Assembly (NCBI RefSeq): GCF_023736115.1
Contig: NZ_JAKQZC010000001.1
Location: forward strand, 434,001-498,000
DNA: 64,000 nucleotides
Source of the DNA: Salinicola avicenniae
GTDB lineage: Bacteria; Pseudomonadota; Gammaproteobacteria; Pseudomonadales; Halomonadaceae
Reading direction: 5' to 3'
Position numbers and translations under genes: made by a program. Positions 43,664 to 52,122 of the stretch are shown one piece after another. The notes below the pieces were generated by a model. The model searched no databases, was not told the DNA's origin, and was given only the letters and a program-made list of their open reading frames with translations. How positions within the stretch are numbered: the first letter of the stretch is position 1; every line of letters starts with the position of its first letter.

Positions 43664-43719
43664 GACGTGTCGTCAGGCATCGCCTGACGTCCGACACCGG
43701 GGCCTCTGCCGCCGGTCTC

Positions 43720-43751
43720 GCAAAAAGCCCCACTTCGGTGGGGCTTTTTGC
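43720..43751 (+). terminator. Strong terminator downstream of rpsO
   Basis: GCAAAAAGCCCCAC pairs with GTGGGGCTTTTTGC around a stable TTCG tetraloop, with a T run in the 3' arm; the A run makes it bidirectional. A separate hairpin, CGTCAGGC-ATC-GCCTGACG at 43671-43689, precedes it and could be a ribonuclease site. Confidence 0.92.
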
Positions 43752-44087
43752 GTTGGGTGTCTGGAATGTCTGTTTGGAATGTCTGTCTGTATTGCCAGCT
43801 TGCGCTCCCTTGTCTGGCGGAGACGATGTTGCGATGAAGGCCAGGCAGGCGGGGGGGCGCCTCCCAACGGCCGGGCGCCGATGCGCTGTTCTGTTCTTCA
43901 TGCCCTCCTTCCCTCCTTTCATTTCTCCTCGCCTTGCCGGCGGATCTGCTGGCGTGACAGCCTCCGACGCCAGCCCTCCGACGCCAGCCTACCGAGGCCA
44001 TTGCTTGGCCGATAGCGGCTGACGCCCGGTAATGGTTTTTTCTTGTCGGGTCTTTACATCGCCTTGCAAGGCTGGATATCGTGGCGA
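43752..44087. other. Noncoding junction between rpsO and the lacI-type gene
   Basis: No credible gene is present in these 336 bases. Two short tandem duplications are visible: TGGAATGTCTGT twice (43762-43773, 43775-43786) and CTCCGACGCCAGCC twice in direct succession (43962-43989). The promoter of the lacI-type gene should lie near the right end. Small open frames here have neither ribosome sites nor family features. Confidence 0.5.
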
Positions 44088-44113
44088 GTAAACGCGTTTA
44101 CTAAACCGGTTTA
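44088..44113 (+). promoter_or_regulatory. Two adjoining LacI-family operators
   Basis: GTAAACGCGTTTAC (44088-44101) is a perfect 14-base palindrome with the central CG typical of LacI/GalR operators. It is followed immediately by TAAACCGGTTTA (44102-44113), a perfect 12-base palindrome. The two lie 22 bases before the regulator's start, which predicts autoregulation. Confidence 0.82.
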
Positions 44114-44135
44114 CGTGCTTGTTTTGGAGTACAGC

Positions 44136-45152
44136 ATGGCCAACCTGCAGGACGTGGCGAAAGCGGCGGGGGTGTCCAAGACCACCGTGTCGCGCTACCT
44201 GAACGGTTCCCTGGAGCTGCCGGCCAAGACCGCGGAGGCCATCGATGCCGCCATTCGGCGTCTGGAATACGTGCCCAACCCGCACGCGCGTCGCCTCAGT
44301 CTCGGCCGCTCCGACACCATTGCACTGGTCGTGCCCGATATCGCCTCGCCGTTCTTCGCTACCTTCGTGGCGGCCGTGGAGGCGGAAGCCGACAAGCAGG
44401 GGCTTTCGCTGGCACTGCACGCGACCCTCAATCGACCCGATCGCGAGATCACCTATCTGGATCGTATTCGGCAGGGGCACGTGGATGGATTGATCTTCGT
44501 CACCAACCATGCCGGCAATGCTGCCCTGGCTGCCAAGCTCAACAGCGCCGGTCCCTGCGTGGTGGTCGACGAGGACGTGGCCGAGGCGCGGGTGCCCAAG
44601 CTGTTCTGCGACAACGAACAGGGCGGCTATCTGGCGGGGCGTTACCTCGCCGAGGCGGGCCACCGTCATGTGCTGTTCATCGGTGGTATCGACCAGATGA
44701 TCAGCGGTGCTCGCCGTTTCCGTGGCTTCGAACGTGGCCTGCGCGAGGTCGCCGGCGAAACCGCGAAGATCGAGCGCTCGTGCGGCACCTACACCTTCGA
44801 GGCCGGTCGCGAGGCGGGACGTCGCTTCGCGGCCCGAACGCAGGCGCGCCCCACCGCGATCTTCGCCACCTCGGACGAACTGGTGATCGGGCTCTACGAG
44901 GCGCTGGGTGAGGCCGGTCTCGTGGTGCCACGGGATGTTTCCGTGATGGGGTTCGACGATGTCGGCCCGTTGCACCTGTTCGCGCCCGCCGTGACCGCGA
45001 TCCGCCAGCCGGTACGCGAGCTGGGCAAACGGGCACTCGAACTGCTGCTCGATGCGCGCCCGGTCGACCCCGCCAAGCCACCGGCCGAAGCGTTGCTACC
45101 GGTCACCCTGGTCGAGCGCCACTCGGTCGGCCCGCCGCCTGTGGTGCCCTGA
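44136..45152 (+). CDS. LacI-family transcriptional regulator
   Basis: A 338-residue repressor. The N-terminal helix-turn-helix and hinge read NLQDVAKAAGVSKTTVSRYLNGS...RLEYVPNPHARRLSLGRS, as in LacI/RbsR. The C-terminal periplasmic-binding-protein-like domain (IALVVPDIASPFFATFV, GHVDGLIF, MGFDDVGP, IRQPVRELGKRALELLL) should bind a sugar-like effector. ATG 44136 has GGAG six bases upstream. Two palindromic operators overlap its promoter. Its position before an ABC importer, kinase, BtpA and TenA genes suggests that it controls this locus. Confidence 0.93.
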   Translation: MANLQDVAKAAGVSKTTVSRYLNGSLELPAKTAEAIDAAIRRLEYVPNPHARRLSLGRSDTIALVVPDIASPFFATFVAAVEAEADKQGLSLALHATLNRPDREITYLDRIRQGHVDGLIFVTNHAGNAALAAKLNSAGPCVVVDEDVAEARVPKLFCDNEQGGYLAGRYLAEAGHRHVLFIGGIDQMISGARRFRGFERGLREVAGETAKIERSCGTYTFEAGREAGRRFAARTQARPTAIFATSDELVIGLYEALGEAGLVVPRDVSVMGFDDVGPLHLFAPAVTAIRQPVRELGKRALELLLDARPVDPAKPPAEALLPVTLVERHSVGPPPVVP

Positions 45153-45243
45153 TGCGCGGGCAGACCTACAGCCAGGCCGCGCGTCGCTCGCTGCAGTCTT
45201 GTGCCGACGGCTCACTGACAGCGCGCCGCCGCCACGACATAAC

Positions 45244-45273
45244 AATGTTTTGACACAGAAATGTTCTGACACA
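45244..45273 (+). promoter_or_regulatory. Direct repeat and -35-like site before the importer genes
   Basis: AATGTTTTGACACA (45244-45257) is repeated as AATGTTCTGACACA (45260-45273), a 16-base period. The first copy contains TTGACA, a consensus -35, but no good -10 follows at 17 bases. It may be a promoter with an activator or repressor site. No copy of the LacI palindrome is present here. Confidence 0.45.
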
Positions 45274-45321
45274 ACTAACGCATTACCCAAACCGCAACAA
45301 ATCCAATAACGAGGAAACCTC

Positions 45322-46254
45322 ATGTCTTCAACGATCGATCGTCGCAAGCTCGGCGCCCTCCTGATTTCCAGCGCCGTCGGCCTTGCCGCGCTGCCCAGTG
45401 TCGCCCAGGCCAAGACCTTCGCGCTGGTGCAGATCAATCAGCAGGCACTGTTCTTCAACGAGATGAACCGGGGTGCCGAGGAGGCCGCCAAGGCCATGGG
45501 CGCCGACCTGCAGGTCTTCAACGCCAACAATGTCTCGTCGGATCAGAACAGCGCCATCGAGACCTATATCCAGGAGGGCGTCGACGGCATCGCCGTCGTG
45601 GCGATCGACGTCAACGGCATCATGCCGGCGATCGAGCAGGCCGATGCGGCCGGCATTCCGGTGGTCGGCATCGATGCGGTGCTGCCGGAAGGACCGCAGA
45701 AAGCGCAGGTCGGTGTCGACAACGCCGAGGCCGGCGCGCAGCTCGCGGCCTACTACAACGACACCGTCGAGGGCGAGACGAAGTTGGGGGTCGTCGCGGC
45801 GCTCAACTCGCTGACCCAGAACATGCGTCGCGATGGCTTCGTCGGCGCGCTCGACACGGATCGTGTCGAGGTCATCAACACCGTCGACGGGCAGAACGTG
45901 CAGGACCTGGCCCTGAGCGCGGCCGAAAACCTGATGATCGCCAACCCGGATCTGGACGCCATCTACGCGACCGGCGAGCCGGCGCTGATGGGCACCATTG
46001 CCGCCGTGGCCAGCCAGGGTAAGCAGGGCGATCTGTCGCTCTACGGCTGGGACCTGACCCAGCAGGCGATCGATGCCATCGATCAGGGCTACGTCAAAGG
46101 CATCGTCCAGCAGGATCCATCGGCCATGGGCGCGGCGGCGATCGAAGCGCTCAATACCCTGTCCGACGGGGGCGAGGTCGAAGCGAATATCTCGGTGCCG
46201 GTCACCATCGTCACGCAGGAGAACGTCGATGCATTCCGGGGGCTGTTCCAATGA
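45322..46254 (+). CDS. Periplasmic sugar-type substrate-binding protein (RbsB family)
   Basis: The solute receptor of an ABC importer. The 310-residue product has a signal peptide cleaved near AQA-KT (residue 30); an RRK before the hydrophobic core hints weakly at Tat export. The mature protein follows the RbsB pattern: FFNEMNRGAEEAAKAMG, DQNSAIETYIQEGVDGIAVVAID, AAGIPVVGIDA, and the late YGWDLTQQAIDAIDQGYVKGIVQQDP. Substrates of this family are pentoses, hexoses, or nucleoside- and autoinducer-like furanoses. It overlaps the ATPase gene by four bases. Confidence 0.93.
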   Translation: MSSTIDRRKLGALLISSAVGLAALPSVAQAKTFALVQINQQALFFNEMNRGAEEAAKAMGADLQVFNANNVSSDQNSAIETYIQEGVDGIAVVAIDVNGIMPAIEQADAAGIPVVGIDAVLPEGPQKAQVGVDNAEAGAQLAAYYNDTVEGETKLGVVAALNSLTQNMRRDGFVGALDTDRVEVINTVDGQNVQDLALSAAENLMIANPDLDAIYATGEPALMGTIAAVASQGKQGDLSLYGWDLTQQAIDAIDQGYVKGIVQQDPSAMGAAAIEALNTLSDGGEVEANISVPVTIVTQENVDAFRGLFQ

Positions 46255-47033
46255 GTGCGGCAGCGGCCTCCTTCTCGGCGGAAAGCGATGTCGGTGCACC
46301 GGCGCCGATTCTCAGCCTGCGTGATATCCACAAGACGTTCGGGTCGCACCAGGCCCTGCGCGGTGTCAATCTGGACATCCGGCCGGGCGAGTGTCTCGGC
46401 CTGATCGGCGACAACGCGGCCGGCAAGTCGACCCTCTCCAAGGTGATCGCCGGTACCTACGTGCCCGATGACGGCGTGATCGAGATGGAGGGCCGGCGCG
46501 CTCACTACGCGAGTCCGCTGGAGGCGCGCGACCTGCACATCGAGATGGTCTATCAGGATCTCGCGCTGTGTAACCACGTCGACGTGGTCGGCAACCTGTT
46601 TCTGGGGCGCGAGCTGAAGCGCGGTCCCTTTCTGGACCAGAAGCGGATGCTTGCCGAGGCCGAAAAGATGCTGGCGGCGCTGGAAATTCGTATCCCCCGG
46701 CTGACCGCCAAGGTGGCGAACCTCTCCGGTGGCCAGCGGCAGGCCATCGCCATCGCGCGGGCCGCCAGCTTCCAGCCCAAGGTGTTGATCATGGATGAGC
46801 CGACCTCGGCGCTGGCGGTGGCCGAGGTAGAAGCGGTGCTCGAACTGATCAACCGGGTCAAAGCCCGGGGTGTTGCCGTGGTACTGATCACCCATCGCAT
46901 GCAGGACCTGTTTCGGGTCTGCGACCGTATTGCCGTGATGTACGAGGGTACCAAGGTTGCCGAACGTCTGATCGGCGATACCAACCTGCAGGAACTCGTC
47001 GACCTGGTCGTCGGCAAGGGAGGCGAGGCATGA
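46251..47033 (+). CDS. Sugar ABC importer ATPase (single-domain, FrcA-like)
   Basis: A cytoplasmic ATPase with one nucleotide-binding domain (260 residues), unlike the duplicated RbsA. It resembles the FrcA size class. Walker A is GDNAAGKST, in which the usual G-A is A-A; the Q-loop is in EMVYQDLALC; the signature is NLSGGQRQAIAIARA; Walker B is VLIMDEPTSAL, and the H-loop is LITHRMQ. The gene is coupled by four-base overlaps to the binding-protein gene before and the permease gene after it. Confidence 0.93.
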   Translation: MSAAAASFSAESDVGAPAPILSLRDIHKTFGSHQALRGVNLDIRPGECLGLIGDNAAGKSTLSKVIAGTYVPDDGVIEMEGRRAHYASPLEARDLHIEMVYQDLALCNHVDVVGNLFLGRELKRGPFLDQKRMLAEAEKMLAALEIRIPRLTAKVANLSGGQRQAIAIARAASFQPKVLIMDEPTSALAVAEVEAVLELINRVKARGVAVVLITHRMQDLFRVCDRIAVMYEGTKVAERLIGDTNLQELVDLVVGKGGEA

Positions 47034-48034
47034 CTACCTATACCGAACGGCAGCGTGGTTCGCAGCTGGCGGATTTCGTCGCGGAACACGCGCAGGTGCT
47101 GTCCATCGCCACCTTCTTCGTGCTCTGTCTGGCGTTCTTCGGATTGATGAACGACAACTTCCTGACCCTCAGCAACCTGCTCAACGTGGTGCGCCAGGCG
47201 GCGCCGATCCTGATCGTGGCCGTCGCGATGACGCTGGTCATCGCCACCGCCGGGATCGACCTCTCGGTCGGCTCGATGGTGGCGCTGATCAACGCGACCG
47301 CCGCGATCGTGATCGCCGCCGGGGTGAGCTGGCCGCTGGCGATCGTGCTGATGCTGCTGATGGGGGCCTTGATCGGCGGTGTGCAGGGTTGGTTCATCTC
47401 CTATCAGGGGATCCCCGCGTTCATCGTCACGCTGGCGGGTCTGTCGATCCTGCGTGGGGCGGCGCTGTTCCTCACCGAGGGGTACTCGATCCCGATCCGC
47501 GATGCCGGTGGCTTCTTCTGGCTCGGCCGGGGCGAGGTGCTGGGGCTGCCGGTGCCGGCACTGCTGGCGGTGCTGGTCGCGGTACTGGGCTTCGTAGTGA
47601 TGCGCAAGACCGCCTACGGACGCCAGGTGATCTCGGTCGGCTCGAACATGGAAGCGGCACGTCGTGTCGGCATGCCCGCCAAGCGGGTGCTGGCCTCGGT
47701 CTACGTCGTCGCCGGCGTGGCTTGTGCGGTCGCCGCCATCCTGCTTGCGGCCCGCTTGGGGTCCGGCTCCTCCAATGCGGCCCAGGGCTTCGAACTGCAG
47801 GTGATCGCGGCGGTGGTGCTGGGCGGTACGGCGCTGCAGGGCGGCAAGGCGTCGATGCTCGGCACGGTGCTCGGCACCATGACCATCGCGGTCATCGGCA
47901 ATGGGCTGATCCTGATGCACATCTCGCCGTTCTTCACCCAGATCGTCACCGGCACGATCATCCTGATCGCGATCTGGATGAACACGCGGCTGTTCGATCG
48001 TCGCTGGCGCTGGGGCAAGAAGAAGGCGGCGTAG
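47030..48034 (+). CDS. Sugar ABC importer permease (RbsC/FrcC family)
   Basis: A 334-residue inner-membrane permease of the BPD_transp_2 family, with about ten hydrophobic helices. Family marks are LTLSNLLNVVRQAAPILIVAVAMTLVIATAGIDLSVGSMVAL near the N-terminus and the EAA-like AARLGSGSSNAAQGFELQVIAAVVLGGTALQGGKASMLGTVLG near residue 250. It completes the importer and is followed by a convergent kinase gene. Confidence 0.93.
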   Translation: MTTYTERQRGSQLADFVAEHAQVLSIATFFVLCLAFFGLMNDNFLTLSNLLNVVRQAAPILIVAVAMTLVIATAGIDLSVGSMVALINATAAIVIAAGVSWPLAIVLMLLMGALIGGVQGWFISYQGIPAFIVTLAGLSILRGAALFLTEGYSIPIRDAGGFFWLGRGEVLGLPVPALLAVLVAVLGFVVMRKTAYGRQVISVGSNMEAARRVGMPAKRVLASVYVVAGVACAVAAILLAARLGSGSSNAAQGFELQVIAAVVLGGTALQGGKASMLGTVLGTMTIAVIGNGLILMHISPFFTQIVTGTIILIAIWMNTRLFDRRWRWGKKKAA

Positions 48035-48059
48035 GTGCTGTCAGGTGCTGTTGGCTGGC

Positions 48060-48092
48060 GCGCGCCGATGGTCATCGAGACGTTCGGCGCGC
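48060..48092. terminator. Hairpin between the permease and kinase genes
   Basis: GCGCGCCGA pairs with TCGGCGCGC across a 15-base loop, between two convergent stop codons. No T run is seen, so the call is tentative. Confidence 0.45.
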
Positions 48093-48106
48093 GATAGGGT
48101 GCTGGC

Positions 48107-48988
48107 TCAGCCGGCGAGGATCGCCTCCATCTCGGTCGGGGAGGGGAAGGCGGTCACGGTGCCGGGGCGGGCCACGGTATGCGAAGCCGCTCTGGCAGCA
48201 TGAACCAGAGCGCGCTCATCCAGCGCGCCACCGCGGCGAATCGCCGAGGCCAGCACCACGGCCATGAAGCAGTCGCCGGCACCGGTGGTATCGACGATAG
48301 CGCAGGGTTCTGCGGGCACGTCGAGTCGCTGGTGCTGGCGGATCAGCGCCGCTCCCTCGCCGCCGAGCGTCAGCACGATATCGCTGACGCCCCGGGCGAG
48401 CAGGTGCTCGACGCCACCCAGCGCGGCGGCCTCGCCCTCGTTGACGAAGGCGACGTCGATCAGCGGCCAGAGCGGATCGAAGTAGTCCTGCAGCGGGGAT
48501 GGATTGAAGGCGGTGCGCATGCCGAGTTCCCGGGCCCGCTCGAGTGCGGCGACGGTGGTCTCGGCACCGAGGTTGCCCTGCATGACCAGCCAGTCGCCGG
48601 CGACGGCGTCGGCCAGTGCGGTGCGGGCCATCTCGGGCGTCACTGCCGAGGCGGCCTCGCGGGTGGTGATGATGGCATTCTCACCCTGTTCGCTCATCAG
48701 CACCGTCGAGAAATCGGTCGCGGTGTCGTCAAGCTCCAGCAGGTGTGCCTGGACGGGCTCAGGCGCCAGTCGTTCGGCAATTTCACGCCCCCGGGCATCG
48801 CGACCGACGCCGGCGACCAGAATGCAAGGCACCCCCGATCTCGCCAGAACCGTGGCCTGATTGGTGCCTTTTCCACCCAGATCGCGAGATAGAGACTGGC
48901 CGAAAATGGACGCGCCGGGCTGTGGGAAATCGGGAATGGATAGCGTCTCGTCGAGCGCGACATTGCCGATAACGAAAGTCTTGATCAC
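48107..48988 (-). CDS. PfkB/ribokinase-family carbohydrate kinase
   Basis: A 293-residue kinase. The N-terminal PfkB signature GGKGTNQATVLARSG and the C-terminal catalytic motif DTTGAGDCFMAVVLA, with its base aspartate, are intact, so it should be active. Ribokinase and nucleoside-type kinases are the nearest groups; the substrate cannot be read from sequence. It is divergent from the BtpA gene with only 32 bases between, convergent with the permease gene, and most likely phosphorylates the imported compound. Confidence 0.9.
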   Translation of the reverse strand: MIKTFVIGNVALDETLSIPDFPQPGASIFGQSLSRDLGGKGTNQATVLARSGVPCILVAGVGRDARGREIAERLAPEPVQAHLLELDDTATDFSTVLMSEQGENAIITTREAASAVTPEMARTALADAVAGDWLVMQGNLGAETTVAALERARELGMRTAFNPSPLQDYFDPLWPLIDVAFVNEGEAAALGGVEHLLARGVSDIVLTLGGEGAALIRQHQRLDVPAEPCAIVDTTGAGDCFMAVVLASAIRRGGALDERALVHAARAASHTVARPGTVTAFPSPTEMEAILAG

Positions 48989-49020
48989 TGATTGTTTTTC
49001 CTATTCCAAGAGATAACGAC

Positions 49021-49863
49021 ATGCAAATTATTTCCGATCGCTCGGAGAATGCAATAAGCGAAATTTTCGGTCGCGATAAAGCGCTGATCGGCATGATTCA
49101 TTGTCCAGCATTTCCCGGTTCTCCGCGCTACCGTGGGGAATCCATGGCGACGATCTACGACGCTTGTCTGCGTGATGCCGAGCGCCTGATCAAAGGGGGG
49201 CTTCACGGGCTTGTGGTCGAAAATCACGGCGACGTGCCTTTCTCCAAACCCGAGGATATCGGTCCGGAAACCTCGGCATTTCTGTCAGTTGTTACCGACA
49301 GAATCAAGCAGGAATTCGACGTGACAATGGGTATCAACGTGCTCGCGAATGCGCCGTTGCCGGCACTGGCGACTGCTGTGGCGGGTGGGGCGGATTTCAT
49401 CCGCGTGAACCAGTGGGCCAATGCCTATGTGGCCAACGAAGGCTTCATGGAGGGGCGGGCAGCGGAAGCGATGCGCTACCGTTCGCTGCTGCGCGCGGAG
49501 CACGTGAAGATTTTCACTGACTCTCACGTCAAGCACGGCAGCCATGCCATCGTCGCCGATCGTTCGATTCCCGAGATGACCCGGGATCTGGCGTTCTTCG
49601 ACAGCGATTGCATCATCGCCACCGGCCAGCGCACCGGCAACAGCGCCACGCTGGAGGAGATCGAGGAGATCGGCGGTGCCACGCACCTGCCGCTGCTGGT
49701 CGGTTCCGGGGTGACCGAAGAGAACATCGCGCAGATTCTCGATCTGACCAACGGCGTGATCGTGGCGTCGTCGCTCAAGGAGGGCGGCGTATGGTGGAAT
49801 CCGGTCGACGAGACACGCGTCGCGCGCTTCGTGGCCGCCGCCCGGGAGCAGCACGATGTCTGA
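49021..49863 (+). CDS. BtpA/SgcQ-family TIM-barrel protein
   Basis: A 280-residue BtpA-family protein. The family pattern is clear: IGMIHCPAFPGSPRY near residue 25, DAERLIKGGLHGLVVENHGDVPF, MGINVLANAPLPALA, GADFIRVNQW, ADVHVKH-like TDSHVKHGSH, and LLVGSGVTEENIAQIL. The fold is expected to be a phosphate-binding barrel, but enzymatic activity in the family is not firmly known; BtpA was named in cyanobacteria for photosystem I, while E. coli SgcQ belongs to a sugar operon. Here it overlaps the TenA-like gene by eight bases and adjoins the kinase. Confidence 0.9.
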   Translation: MQIISDRSENAISEIFGRDKALIGMIHCPAFPGSPRYRGESMATIYDACLRDAERLIKGGLHGLVVENHGDVPFSKPEDIGPETSAFLSVVTDRIKQEFDVTMGINVLANAPLPALATAVAGGADFIRVNQWANAYVANEGFMEGRAAEAMRYRSLLRAEHVKIFTDSHVKHGSHAIVADRSIPEMTRDLAFFDSDCIIATGQRTGNSATLEEIEEIGGATHLPLLVGSGVTEENIAQILDLTNGVIVASSLKEGGVWWNPVDETRVARFVAAAREQHDV

Positions 49864-50524
49864 GCTGCTGACCGATCGCATCCTGGCCGAAAACGCCGCC
49901 GTCTTTGAGGCCATGGTCTCCCACCGCTTCGTTCACGACATCGAGGCGGATCGCCTGCCGGTCGAGGTCTTCGATCGCTATCTGCTGATCGAAGGCGCAT
50001 TTGTCGAAACGGCCATTGCCATCTTCGGCTACGCGGTGGTCAAGGCGACTGACCTCGACGATCGGCGCAAGCTGATCGCCTCGCTCGACGCGCTGGCCAA
50101 CGAACAGATGCCCTACTTCGAGGCGGCATTTGTCCAGCGCGGTATCGCACCCGATCCCACATTGCAGGCAGAGCCTCGGGTGGCGGCGTTCCGCGACGGG
50201 ATGCTGGCGATTGCCCGTGACGGCGACTTCAGCGCCATCATCACCGCCATGTTCGCGGCCGAGTGGATGTACTGGACCTGGTGCGATGCCATCCGCCAGG
50301 CGCCCATGAGCGACCCGATGGTGCGTGACTGGATCGAGATGCACGCTGCGCCCGGTTTTGCGGCGCAGGCGCGCTGGTTGCGGGATCGACTGGATGCGTT
50401 GGGCGCGCAGATGACGCCGGCCCAGCGCGACGAGGCGGTCCGCGTGTTCGGTGAAGTGCAACGGCTCGAGATCGATTTTCATGCCGCGGCCTACGTCGAG
50501 AGCGAGCTCTCCCCGGTGGCCTAG
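49856..50524 (+). CDS. TenA-family protein lacking the catalytic cysteine
   Basis: A 222-residue all-helical protein of the TenA/THI-4 family; classical members hydrolyse aminopyrimidine in thiamin salvage. The conserved late glutamate (QRLEIDFHAAAY) is present, but the catalytic Cys segment is AAEWMYWTW, with Ala in place of Cys, and the usual Asp near residue 44 is Glu (YLLIEGAFVE). It therefore belongs to the cysteine-free group (TenA_E-like), whose substrates are largely unknown. It overlaps the BtpA gene, suggesting a joint function. Confidence 0.8.
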   Translation: MSELLTDRILAENAAVFEAMVSHRFVHDIEADRLPVEVFDRYLLIEGAFVETAIAIFGYAVVKATDLDDRRKLIASLDALANEQMPYFEAAFVQRGIAPDPTLQAEPRVAAFRDGMLAIARDGDFSAIITAMFAAEWMYWTWCDAIRQAPMSDPMVRDWIEMHAAPGFAAQARWLRDRLDALGAQMTPAQRDEAVRVFGEVQRLEIDFHAAAYVESELSPVA

Positions 50525-50803
50525 GTGTCATTTTGACCGCTGTTGCCTGTCCGTCGAGGCGCGTTGACGCGCCAGTGACAGCGTTTGCCACTCATGGTCC
50601 TGATCGGCGACCTCGACGCTGGTCGGGCCAATTGCAAAGCGCGGCGAGGTTGCCTAGTCTCCTCGCCCGATCTTTTTCGGGAACCCCGTTTTGTCGGCGT
50701 GTCCCGCGTCCCGTTATCTCCGCCCGGTTTCTGCCTGCCCGTCGTTTGCCGGCTGTCGTCAACGGCTGTTTTCAATGGCTTTGGGCCCTCCAAGGATATT
50801 TCC

Positions 50804-51994
50804 ATGACCCGATCGCACGCTGTCGCCGGCATCTCGCCTACGCGGCATCTGATCGTCCTCACTGTGTCGCTGTTTCTCTCCTACTTGTGCGTGGCGCTGT
50901 CGCTGCCGGTGGTCTCCGTCTACGTCAACCAGCATCTGGGGCTTGGCGATACGCTTGGCGGTCTGGCCGTCGGGATCACCTTCCTGGCGACCATTCTCAC
51001 GCGCAATCTGGCCGGTCGTCTCTCCGACCGTTACGGCGGCCGACATGCGATGTTTCGTGGGCTGGCGCTCTACGCGCTGGCGAGTCTCGTCTGTCTGGCG
51101 TCGTCCCTGGTTAGTGCAACGCCGTTGTTGGCTTATGCTGGGCTGCTCGTCGGCCGGCTGTTGCTGGGGCTGGGCGAAAGCCTCACGATCATCGGCATGG
51201 TCAGCTGGGGGATGGGGCTGGGCGGCCCGGCGCGCTCTGGACGCGTGCTCTCGCTGATGGGCATGGGCATGTACGGCGCCTTCGTGGTCGGTGGTCCGCT
51301 GGGGCTGGCGCTCTATCATCAGTTCTCCTTCGCGGGTTTGATGGGGCTGGCGGGTCTGCTGCCACTGCTGGGCGCGCTGCTGGTCCGCTCCGTGCCGGCC
51401 GATACGCCGGTGGCGGGCGAGAGGCAGTCGTTCTGGCGCTTGATCGGGCGAATCTGGAAGCCCGGCGCGGCCGTCGGGTTGCAGGGGGTCGGCTTCGCCG
51501 CGCTAGGCGCCTTCATCTCGCTCTACTTTCTTGACGAGGGTTGGCCCTGGGCGGGTTGGGGGTTGAGTGGCTTCGGTCTCGGTTACGTGCTCGTGCGTCT
51601 GCTGTGCGGGCACCTGCCGGATCGGCTCGGCGGAACCCGGGTGGCGATGGTGTCGCTGGCCGTCGAGGCCTGCGGTCAGGCGCTACTATGGCAGGCAACC
51701 GGGCCCGGGATGGCGCTCGTCGGCGCCTTCCTGACCGGTCTCGGCTGCTCGATGGTGTTCCCGGCGATGGGGCTGGAGGCGGTGCGCCGCGTGCCGGCAT
51801 CGCAGCGCGGCACGGCGATGGGGGGATTCGCCGCTTTCCAGGATGTCGCCTACGGCGCCACGGGGCCGGTCGCCGGCCTGTTCGCCGGCGCTTTCGGCTA
51901 CGCCAATATCTTCCTGCTCGGCCTGCTGGCGGCGTTGCTGGGGCTTTGGGTGGCCTGGCTGGCCCACCGGGATACGCCCGGCGAAGGAGGCTGA
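50804..51994 (+). CDS. MFS transporter (YhhS-like)
   Basis: A 396-residue inner-membrane transporter with about 12 helices. The MFS motif A is visible in loop 2-3 as NLAGRLSDRYGGRHAM, with a second GHLPDRLGG between helices 8 and 9. General resemblance is to YhhS/YfcJ exporters. AAGGA lies seven bases before ATG 50804; the longer in-frame reading from 50585 is rejected. It lies alone between the BtpA/TenA pair and eutBC, 128 bases before eutB, so transport of a substrate or product of either is possible but unproven. Confidence 0.85.
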   Translation: MTRSHAVAGISPTRHLIVLTVSLFLSYLCVALSLPVVSVYVNQHLGLGDTLGGLAVGITFLATILTRNLAGRLSDRYGGRHAMFRGLALYALASLVCLASSLVSATPLLAYAGLLVGRLLLGLGESLTIIGMVSWGMGLGGPARSGRVLSLMGMGMYGAFVVGGPLGLALYHQFSFAGLMGLAGLLPLLGALLVRSVPADTPVAGERQSFWRLIGRIWKPGAAVGLQGVGFAALGAFISLYFLDEGWPWAGWGLSGFGLGYVLVRLLCGHLPDRLGGTRVAMVSLAVEACGQALLWQATGPGMALVGAFLTGLGCSMVFPAMGLEAVRRVPASQRGTAMGGFAAFQDVAYGATGPVAGLFAGAFGYANIFLLGLLAALLGLWVAWLAHRDTPGEGG

Positions 51995-52122
51995 TATCGG
52001 CGCGTTGAAAGGTGAGCCCGCTGCGGCAGCGCGCATCGCGGCGAAGATGGCATAAACTGCAGGTATCTCGACGATAGACACGATGACAACCACAAGCACG
52101 GCGAATCGCACCGAGACCCCTT

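What the first reader, a model, noticed from the sequence alone, without database searches (positions are those of the whole stretch)
48107..50524. Uncharacterised kinase-BtpA-TenA module next to a LacI-controlled sugar importer
Seen: a LacI regulator (44136), a three-gene RbsB/FrcA/FrcC-type importer (45322-48034), and then a PfkB-family kinase divergent by 32 bases from an overlapping BtpA plus cysteine-free TenA-like pair. Known: PfkB kinases phosphorylate sugars and nucleosides, TenA relatives cleave amino groups or amides, and BtpA is a barrel protein of unclear activity. Inference: this is a salvage route in which an imported sugar-like or nucleoside-like compound is phosphorylated, split by BtpA and deaminated or hydrolysed by TenA. 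No known pathway matches this set exactly as far as I can tell.
Basis: partly seen in the sequence, partly recalled or inferred. Interest (0 to 1): 0.75.

Follow-up and report, generated by a model that had tools for sequence, protein, structure and literature searches.

The report
Salvage operon for unknown ribosyl compound
A salt-loving bacterium has acquired, apparently by gene transfer from marine alphaproteobacteria, a regulated set of genes that probably imports and breaks down a ribose-bearing nitrogen compound whose identity is still unknown.

Summary
In detail: LacI, a CUT2-type importer, a PfkB kinase, BtpA and a cysteine-free TenA lie where stated. They are a conserved unit: in 80 BtpA-selected loci a kinase is found in 80, the binding protein in 78, TenA in 64. 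A hydantoinase/carbamoylase-type M20 amidase accompanies TenA in 19 loci and takes its place in 10. A LacI operator precedes lacI here and in 78 of 78 relatives. The host looks Halomonas-like by 16S, but BtpA nests among Rhodobacterales and the block is an insertion after rpsO: horizontal transfer. Binding protein and kinase keep some ribose contacts and lost others. I favour import of a ribosyl-N compound, 5-phosphorylation, BtpA action on the phosphoribosyl bond, and C-N hydrolysis by TenA/M20. Substrate and reactions are untested. Salmonella's kinase-GAT-PTE cluster is published, substrate unknown; searches found no paper on the BtpA-TenA form.

The parts
44087..44102 (.). LacI operator, perfect 16-base palindrome AGTAAACGCGTTTACT, 33 bases between its end and the lacI start
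   Evidence: Only match in the window at up to 3 mismatches, 0.05 expected; same motif (at most 2 mismatches) upstream of lacI in 78 of 78 loci with a LacI hit, 58 exact, control windows 0
44136..45152 (+). LacI-family regulator
   Evidence: Pfam PF00356 and PF13377; no NCBIfam model listed reaches its cut-off
45322..46254 (+). Periplasmic binding protein, RbsB-like but with altered pocket
   Evidence: PF13407; nearest solved chain 5hsg, E 1.3e-99; pocket residues
46251..47033 (+). ABC ATPase, single domain
   Evidence: PF00005, 260 aa
47030..48034 (+). ABC permease
   Evidence: PF02653
48107..48988 (-). PfkB/ribokinase-like kinase, antisense to its neighbours
   Evidence: PF00294; nearest solved chain 3i3y, E 3.9e-72; same antisense placement in 60 of 80 loci
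49021..49863 (+). BtpA/SgcQ-family barrel protein
   Evidence: PF03437, TIGR00259 above cut-off; conserved GSG and SLK motifs
49856..50524 (+). TenA-like protein of the cysteine-free, TenA_E-like type
   Evidence: PF03070; Ala135/Glu136/Glu205
50654..51994 (+). MFS transporter inside the inserted block; role in the pathway unknown
   Evidence: NF009048 'arabinose transporter' and NF003477 'MFS transporter' subfamily models over cut-off; absent between rpsO and eutB in sibling L171
43664..52122 (.). Inserted block between rpsO and eutB
   Evidence: In same-genus locus L171 rpsO ends at 1776 and eutB starts at 1977

Best explanation
A horizontally acquired, LacI-controlled catabolic unit for a ribose-bearing nitrogen compound (a nucleoside-like or N-ribosyl compound rather than free ribose). 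Proposed steps: (1) the CUT2-type ABC system imports it; (2) the PfkB kinase phosphorylates the ribosyl 5-hydroxyl; (3) BtpA, a barrel with a probable phosphate-gripping C-terminal half, breaks or rearranges the bond between phosphoribosyl and nitrogen, giving a pentose phosphate and the aglycone; (4) the TenA_E-like enzyme, helped or replaced in relatives by an M20 amidase, hydrolyses a C-N bond of the aglycone. PTE and GAT, present in most relatives but not found here, would trim or open a substrate form this host does not use. Shown: gene content, families, conservation, operator motif, residue changes, transfer. Inferred: every reaction and the ligand.
For: Co-conservation: kinase 80 of 80 loci, binding protein 78, PTE 78, GAT 78, TenA 64 of 80. 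Independent sample of 398 Pseudomonadota genomes: the 4 close TenAs (E <= 2e-50, window included) all adjoin BtpA and kinase, while the 14 distant TenAs show no BtpA in their roughly 3.6-kb loci; of 12 clade BtpA genes in 11 genomes, 11 have a kinase nearby. One operator motif before lacI in 78 of 78. Binding protein (86 sequences at least 50% identical to a reference): F15, F16, D89, R141, D215 kept in 86 and Q235 in 85, while N13, F164, N190 are replaced in 86 and R90 is A (82) or S (4), all small residues. Kinase (81 sequences, same filter): D16, G42, K43, N46, D255 kept, E143 is N in 81, whereas the kinase of the rikA-type cluster in E. albertii keeps Glu there. BtpA profile to TrpA E 0.0022, CutC E 0.0095, TrpF E 0.62 over residues about 187-272. 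Nitrogen context: hydantoinase/carbamoylase-type M20 next to BtpA or TenA, ureidoglycine aminohydrolase and M20 beside the E-37 unit, nucleoside hydrolase beside the Palleronia unit, XdhC beside the K15/93 unit.
Against: No ligand or activity is known. The Salmonella relative of the kinase phosphorylates free ribose (PMC13432705). TenA is absent in 16 of 80 loci, no kinase was found in the Palleronia locus, and BtpA is not among the genes described or annotated in the Salmonella-type clusters, so no part is strictly obligatory. Neighbouring purine or ureide genes vary between loci: clustering of flanks found no non-core family conserved across clades. The TrpA similarity of BtpA is weak and partial, and no structure model could be made. 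Residue counts leave out members under 50% identity; the own-genome paralogous set differs at some of these positions.
Confidence: 0.5

Rival explanations
1. The unit degrades a glycated amine (ribulosamine or other Amadori compound): the kinase phosphorylates the sugar, BtpA is a deglycase analogous to FrlB, and PTE, GAT, M20 and TenA trim the amino-acid part.
For: A GAT homologue lies close to a hydantoinase/oxoprolinase pair, an SIS protein and a fructoselysine 6-kinase on a Ti plasmid; gamma-glutamyltransferase adjoins the Roseivivax marinus TenA-kinase-importer set.
Against: Those are single loci, the first with a distant GAT (40% identical); the binding pocket is ribose-like and TenA has no role there that I know of.
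Confidence: 0.15
2. Ordinary ribose or simple pentose importer and kinase, with BtpA and TenA as accessory or unrelated genes.
For: RikA of Salmonella is a ribose kinase (PMC13432705); the kinase keeps the ribokinase core residues and the binding protein keeps several RbsB contacts.
Against: Four RbsB contacts and kinase E143 are replaced in all clade members compared; BtpA/TenA linkage is conserved; the authors of the RikA paper themselves suggest an unknown substrate.
Confidence: 0.13
3. Salvage of thiamin pyrimidine breakdown products (FAMP to AmMP to HMP) by a TenA_E enzyme.
For: The TenA has the TenA_E residue pattern; M20 amidases recur beside it, as YlmB does the deformylation in bacteria (PMC5635689 passages; that YlmB is an M20 protein is recalled).
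Against: LacI control and a sugar-type importer; no TPP riboswitch in the window or in L036, L101, L102; Sagittula stellata E-37, whose plasmid carries such a BtpA-TenA pair, has TenA_E but did not grow on FAMP (PMC10470507 passages; I could not prove that its listed TenA_E is this one, and the authors suggest lack of a FAMP transporter); kinase, BtpA and PTE have no place in that route as I know it.
Confidence: 0.07

Closest known systems
Salmonella rikA cluster STM3547-STM3550 (PMC13432705)
   Same: PfkB kinase, PF07090 protein and phosphotriesterase-family protein side by side in most relatives of the window unit; substrate unknown there too
   Different: DMT transporter instead of the ABC system; STM3547-3550 as described holds no BtpA or TenA; the window lacks the PF07090 and PTE genes of that cluster
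Thiamin pyrimidine salvage by TenA_E / YlmB
   Same: Cysteine-free TenA, in relatives often with an M20 amidase
   Different: Sugar-type importer, LacI, kinase, BtpA; no riboswitch found
E. coli rbsDACBK-rbsR ribose operon
   Same: RbsB-like binding protein, ATPase, permease and PfkB kinase; LacI-type regulator
   Different: Altered pocket, single-domain ATPase of 260 aa, BtpA and TenA added
E. coli sgc operon (SgcQ)
   Same: BtpA/SgcQ family member in a sugar-uptake operon
   Different: PTS uptake, distant BtpA lacking the NQWANAY and VKHG(S/A)HA motifs

Membership tests
BtpA/SgcQ family | Match to PF03437 / TIGR00259 over full length above cut-off | tested here: met
   223 bits (cut-off 30) and 212 bits (cut-off 153)
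BtpA/SgcQ family | Photosystem I biogenesis equivalog NF045918 | tested here: not met
   184 bits against cut-off 400
TenA_E | TenA family protein without active-site Cys135 but with two conserved active-site glutamates | tested here: met
   PF03070; Ala135, Glu136 and Glu205; criterion as in PMC5635689. Which two glutamates that paper means was not checked residue by residue
TenA_E | Hydrolysis of FAMP/AmMP | not testable with these tools
   Needs enzyme assay
Thiaminase II equivalog TIGR04306 | Score over cut-off | tested here: not met
   57.6 bits against 130
Ribokinase (TIGR02152) | Score over equivalog cut-off | tested here: not met
   174.7 bits against 299.65
Ribokinase | Conserved sugar and catalytic residues incl. 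E143 (roles recalled) | tested here: not met
   D16, G42, K43, N46, D255 kept; E143 is Asn in 81 of 81 compared
Ribose-binding protein RbsB | Full set of ribose contacts (list recalled) | tested here: not met
   N13, R90, F164, N190 replaced; RbsB equivalog 92.5 bits against 337
CUT2-type ABC importer | Peripla_BP_4-type binding protein, ABC ATPase, BPD_transp_2 permease in one unit | tested here: met
Thiamin salvage operon | TPP riboswitch | tested here: not met
   None at gathering score in window, L036, L101, L102
rikA-type cluster | Kinase with PF07090 and PTE genes | tested here: not met
   Neither found in this genome (the PTE search had no positive control); present in 78 of 80 relatives

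The most novel reading that the evidence does not exclude
BtpA of this clade is a phosphoribosyl-N lyase or isomerase of a new type (TrpA/TrpF-like barrel), and the TenA_E branch here serves carbon and nitrogen catabolism of a ribosylated heterocycle or ureide (for example ring-opened or oxidised nucleosides) instead of thiamin salvage: a modular nucleoside-like catabolic pathway spread by gene transfer across Alpha- and Gammaproteobacteria.
Probability: 0.35. Interest if true: 0.75.

Novelty: new variant of a known kind. Interest (0 to 1): 0.55.

Why it matters
BtpA/SgcQ proteins have no assigned reaction that I know of, and sequence searches found no clear solved relative. A conserved operon tying one BtpA clade to a kinase, an importer and C-N hydrolases gives a concrete, testable substrate class. 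It also warns that some bacterial TenA_E genes counted as vitamin B1 salvage may belong to another pathway, which could explain why Sagittula stellata E-37 failed to grow on FAMP. And it links the orphan Salmonella rikA cluster to a wider gene set.

Tried and rejected
Thiamin salvage: set low on regulation, importer type, lack of riboswitch and the E-37 growth result. Chance neighbours: rejected by co-conservation. Base-composition evidence for transfer: none, the cluster is 64.9% GC against 64.7% for the window; transfer rests on tree, 16S and insertion site. I first read the 10 M20-only loci as simple replacement of TenA; 19 loci have both genes (18 with M20 directly after TenA, L065 elsewhere), so they may be successive steps. 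First alignment A1 held one wrongly taken row (L009, 23% identical) and was replaced by A2. I read R141 of RbsB as lost by eye; the alignment of 86 shows it kept. Flank clustering gave no further conserved partner. Literature: a gene-tag search and family-combination searches gave, of use, only the RikA paper and two papers on TenA_E. Clade-wide counts rest on loci chosen by BtpA similarity and on the best 80 of 274.

A structure model of BtpA was asked for eight times and the machine was busy each time; no fold search was run.

Full report
What is there. Searches confirm LacI (44136-45152), an RbsB-like binding protein, a single-domain ATPase and a permease (45322-48034), a PfkB kinase on the minus strand (48107-48988), BtpA (49021-49863) and TenA (49856-50524). 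Among the NCBIfam models listed for these seven proteins (for the ATPase the best 25 of 188), only the BtpA/SgcQ subfamily model is passed at its cut-off.

Conservation. A scan of named genomes with BtpA found 274 relatives; the best 80 (L011-L090) were examined. By tblastn and blastp the usual order is LacI - SBP - ATPase - permease - PTE - GAT - kinase(-) - BtpA - TenA, in Rhodobacterales and Rhizobiales. PTE, GAT and SBP lie within 9 kb of BtpA in 78 of 80; the two misses, L024 and L032, are cut upstream by contig ends. PTE and GAT directly follow the permease in 74 of 80; they follow TenA in L068, L073 and L090 and belong to a second set upstream in L065 (my count on the listing). A kinase hit is found in 80 of 80: antisense directly upstream of BtpA in 60, in the BtpA direction in 17, antisense but elsewhere in 3. 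TenA is present in 64 of 80: 45 without and 19 with a hydantoinase/carbamoylase-type M20 amidase. Of the 16 without TenA, 10 have that M20 right after BtpA and 6 have neither; one of the 6, L024, has an ArgE/DapE-like M20 gene facing BtpA. Three M20 proteins from the place after BtpA (L047, and plasmid loci L102 and L110) score 372 to 406 bits against the 204-bit cut-off of TIGR01879.

An unselected view. In 398 Pseudomonadota genomes the BtpA clade (E <= 1e-45) occurs in 11, with 12 copies. For 10 of the copies I fetched the region, and the window and own-genome copies were already held; 11 of 12 have a kinase nearby, L153 being the exception; 4 of 12 have TenA, 3 the carbamoylase-type M20, and 7 PTE and GAT. 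TenA searched on its own hits 18 of 398; the four strong hits (E <= 2e-50, window included) lie beside BtpA and kinase, while none of the 14 weak ones has BtpA in its roughly 3.6-kb locus. One other gammaproteobacterial locus, L150, has LacI, importer, TenA, BtpA and kinase but no PTE or GAT hit, like the window. The rikA cluster of Salmonella (PMC13432705: outline, abstract and passages read) and the similar cluster of an E. albertii plasmid have kinase, GAT and PTE, with no BtpA or TenA described or annotated there. So two submodules, {kinase, PTE, GAT} and {kinase, BtpA, TenA and/or M20}, are often fused.

Regulation. A perfect palindrome AGTAAACGCGTTTACT at 44087-44102 is the only such site in the window at up to three mismatches, 0.05 expected. 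GTAAANCGNTTTAC with at most two mismatches lies within 150 bases upstream of lacI in 78 of 78 loci with a LacI hit, exact in 58, and in none of the control windows of the same length inside the same loci. Binding by LacI is inferred. No TPP riboswitch was found in the window, L036, L101 or L102.

Origin. Among the 15 records listed for the genome's 16S, the most identical is Halomonas sp. PA16-9 at 94.1% over 1,087 bases; the others, which cover more or as much of the query, are at about 88-90% and are gammaproteobacterial. The tally of that call counts two records at 95-99%, which were not listed and which I did not see. The BtpA tree puts the window with Rhodobacter sp. TJ_12 (support 98/84) inside a Rhodobacterales set (100/95). 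In a class-level sample of 369 genomes, 6 including the window have a BtpA at E <= 1e-30, the other five only 30-38% identical, and TenA is found in 1 of 194 genomes of the order, the window's own. Eight genomes of the same genus or family listed lack TenA and BtpA at those thresholds. Of six same-genus rpsO regions, L171 has eutB 200 bases after rpsO and L173 has rpsO then eutB with 1.4 kb between; L174 goes to the sulfatase gene, L169 and L170 differ, L172 ends. The block 43664-52122 is therefore read as an insertion; it includes an MFS gene of uncertain role. PTE and GAT were not found in this genome (the PTE search had no positive control, the GAT search did).

Residues. TenA: alanine where H. 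pylori TenA has its cysteine, with Ala135, Glu136, Tyr139 and Glu205 invariant in 71 sequences. This fits the TenA_E criterion in PMC5635689 (passages). Binding protein, 86 sequences against E. coli RbsB (contact list recalled; only proteins at least 50% identical to a reference were taken, and a few loci occur twice under two ids): F15, F16, D89, R141, D215 and Q235 kept (Q235 in 85), F214 is Trp; N13 and R90 are Ala (R90 Ser in 4), F164 and N190 are Gly. Kinase, 81 sequences against RbsK with the same filter: E143 is Asn in all, core residues kept. The kinases of E. albertii (rikA-type cluster) and Rhodococcus keep Glu there, and the own-genome paralogue differs. I read this as a ribosyl group with a substituent where free ribose has its hydroxyl; that is inference. 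BtpA: no clear solved homologue by single sequence; with a profile the best PDB hits are TrpA (E 0.0022), CutC (E 0.0095) and, weakly, TrpF (E 0.62), all over its C-terminal half, which holds the conserved GSG and SLK motifs. Phosphate binding there is inference from the TrpA likeness and fits a kinase acting first.

Hints about the aglycone. M20 enzymes of carbamoylase or ArgE/DapE type recur. Sagittula stellata E-37 has a RidA family gene, ureidoglycine aminohydrolase (303 bits, cut-off 200) and an allantoate-amidohydrolase-like M20 directly before a GntR - kinase - BtpA - unknown - unknown - BtpA - TenA run. Palleronia has a nucleoside hydrolase directly before lacI. Rhizobium K15/93 has XdhC, and Pantoea has molybdenum hydroxylase genes nearby. 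PTE is closest among solved proteins to 3k2g, then 3rhg and 9efa; PTER, which I recall as the 9efa protein, is an N-acetyltaurine hydrolase (PMC11374699, listing only), so an amidohydrolase role is reasonable. These hints point to nitrogen heterocycles or ureides but vary from locus to locus.

E-37 point. PMC10470507 (passages) reports that E-37 has TenA_E yet did not grow on FAMP; the authors suggest lack of a FAMP transporter. E-37 carries a TenA of the present kind (57.7% identical; region). If that is the TenA_E they list, a non-thiamin role is a simple alternative. I could not link their UniProt entry to this gene.

Verdict. A real, conserved, mobile catabolic unit of unknown substrate, best read as ribosyl-N compound salvage.

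Noticed in passing
window 48989-49020 and 60 of 80 related loci: The kinase gene is antisense inside an otherwise collinear unit, its start only 24-49 bases from the btpA start (32 here), little room for two ordinary divergent promoters; possibly a noncontiguous-operon arrangement (the term from the listing).
   Followed up: partly
L094 5570-11239 (G000 contig 5): A second kinase-BtpA-importer set in the same genome, with two small unknown proteins (about 241 and 115 aa; the larger has no Pfam match) in place of TenA; a like kinase-BtpA-unknown-unknown run lies beside BtpA-TenA in Sagittula stellata E-37.
   Followed up: partly
L019: An Enemella evansiae (Actinomycetota) record carries a Rhodobacterales-type cluster (BtpA 82% identical to the window); it groups with an alphaproteobacterial MAG and may be contamination or mislabelling.
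   Followed up: no
L100 6326-8000: In a Klebsiella pneumoniae record an IS1 transposase gene lies between a shortened kinase frame and BtpA, so the kinase looks interrupted.
   Followed up: no
L107 7989-11901: Rhodococcus rhodochrous pNit has a GAT homologue with LacI, PfkB kinase and ribose-phosphate pyrophosphokinase genes, near nicotinate phosphoribosyltransferase: another ribose-linked GAT setting.
   Followed up: no
L092 11599-11612, L015 and L019 11627-11640: An exact copy of the LacI operator motif lies downstream of TenA in three loci, perhaps before another regulated gene.
   Followed up: no
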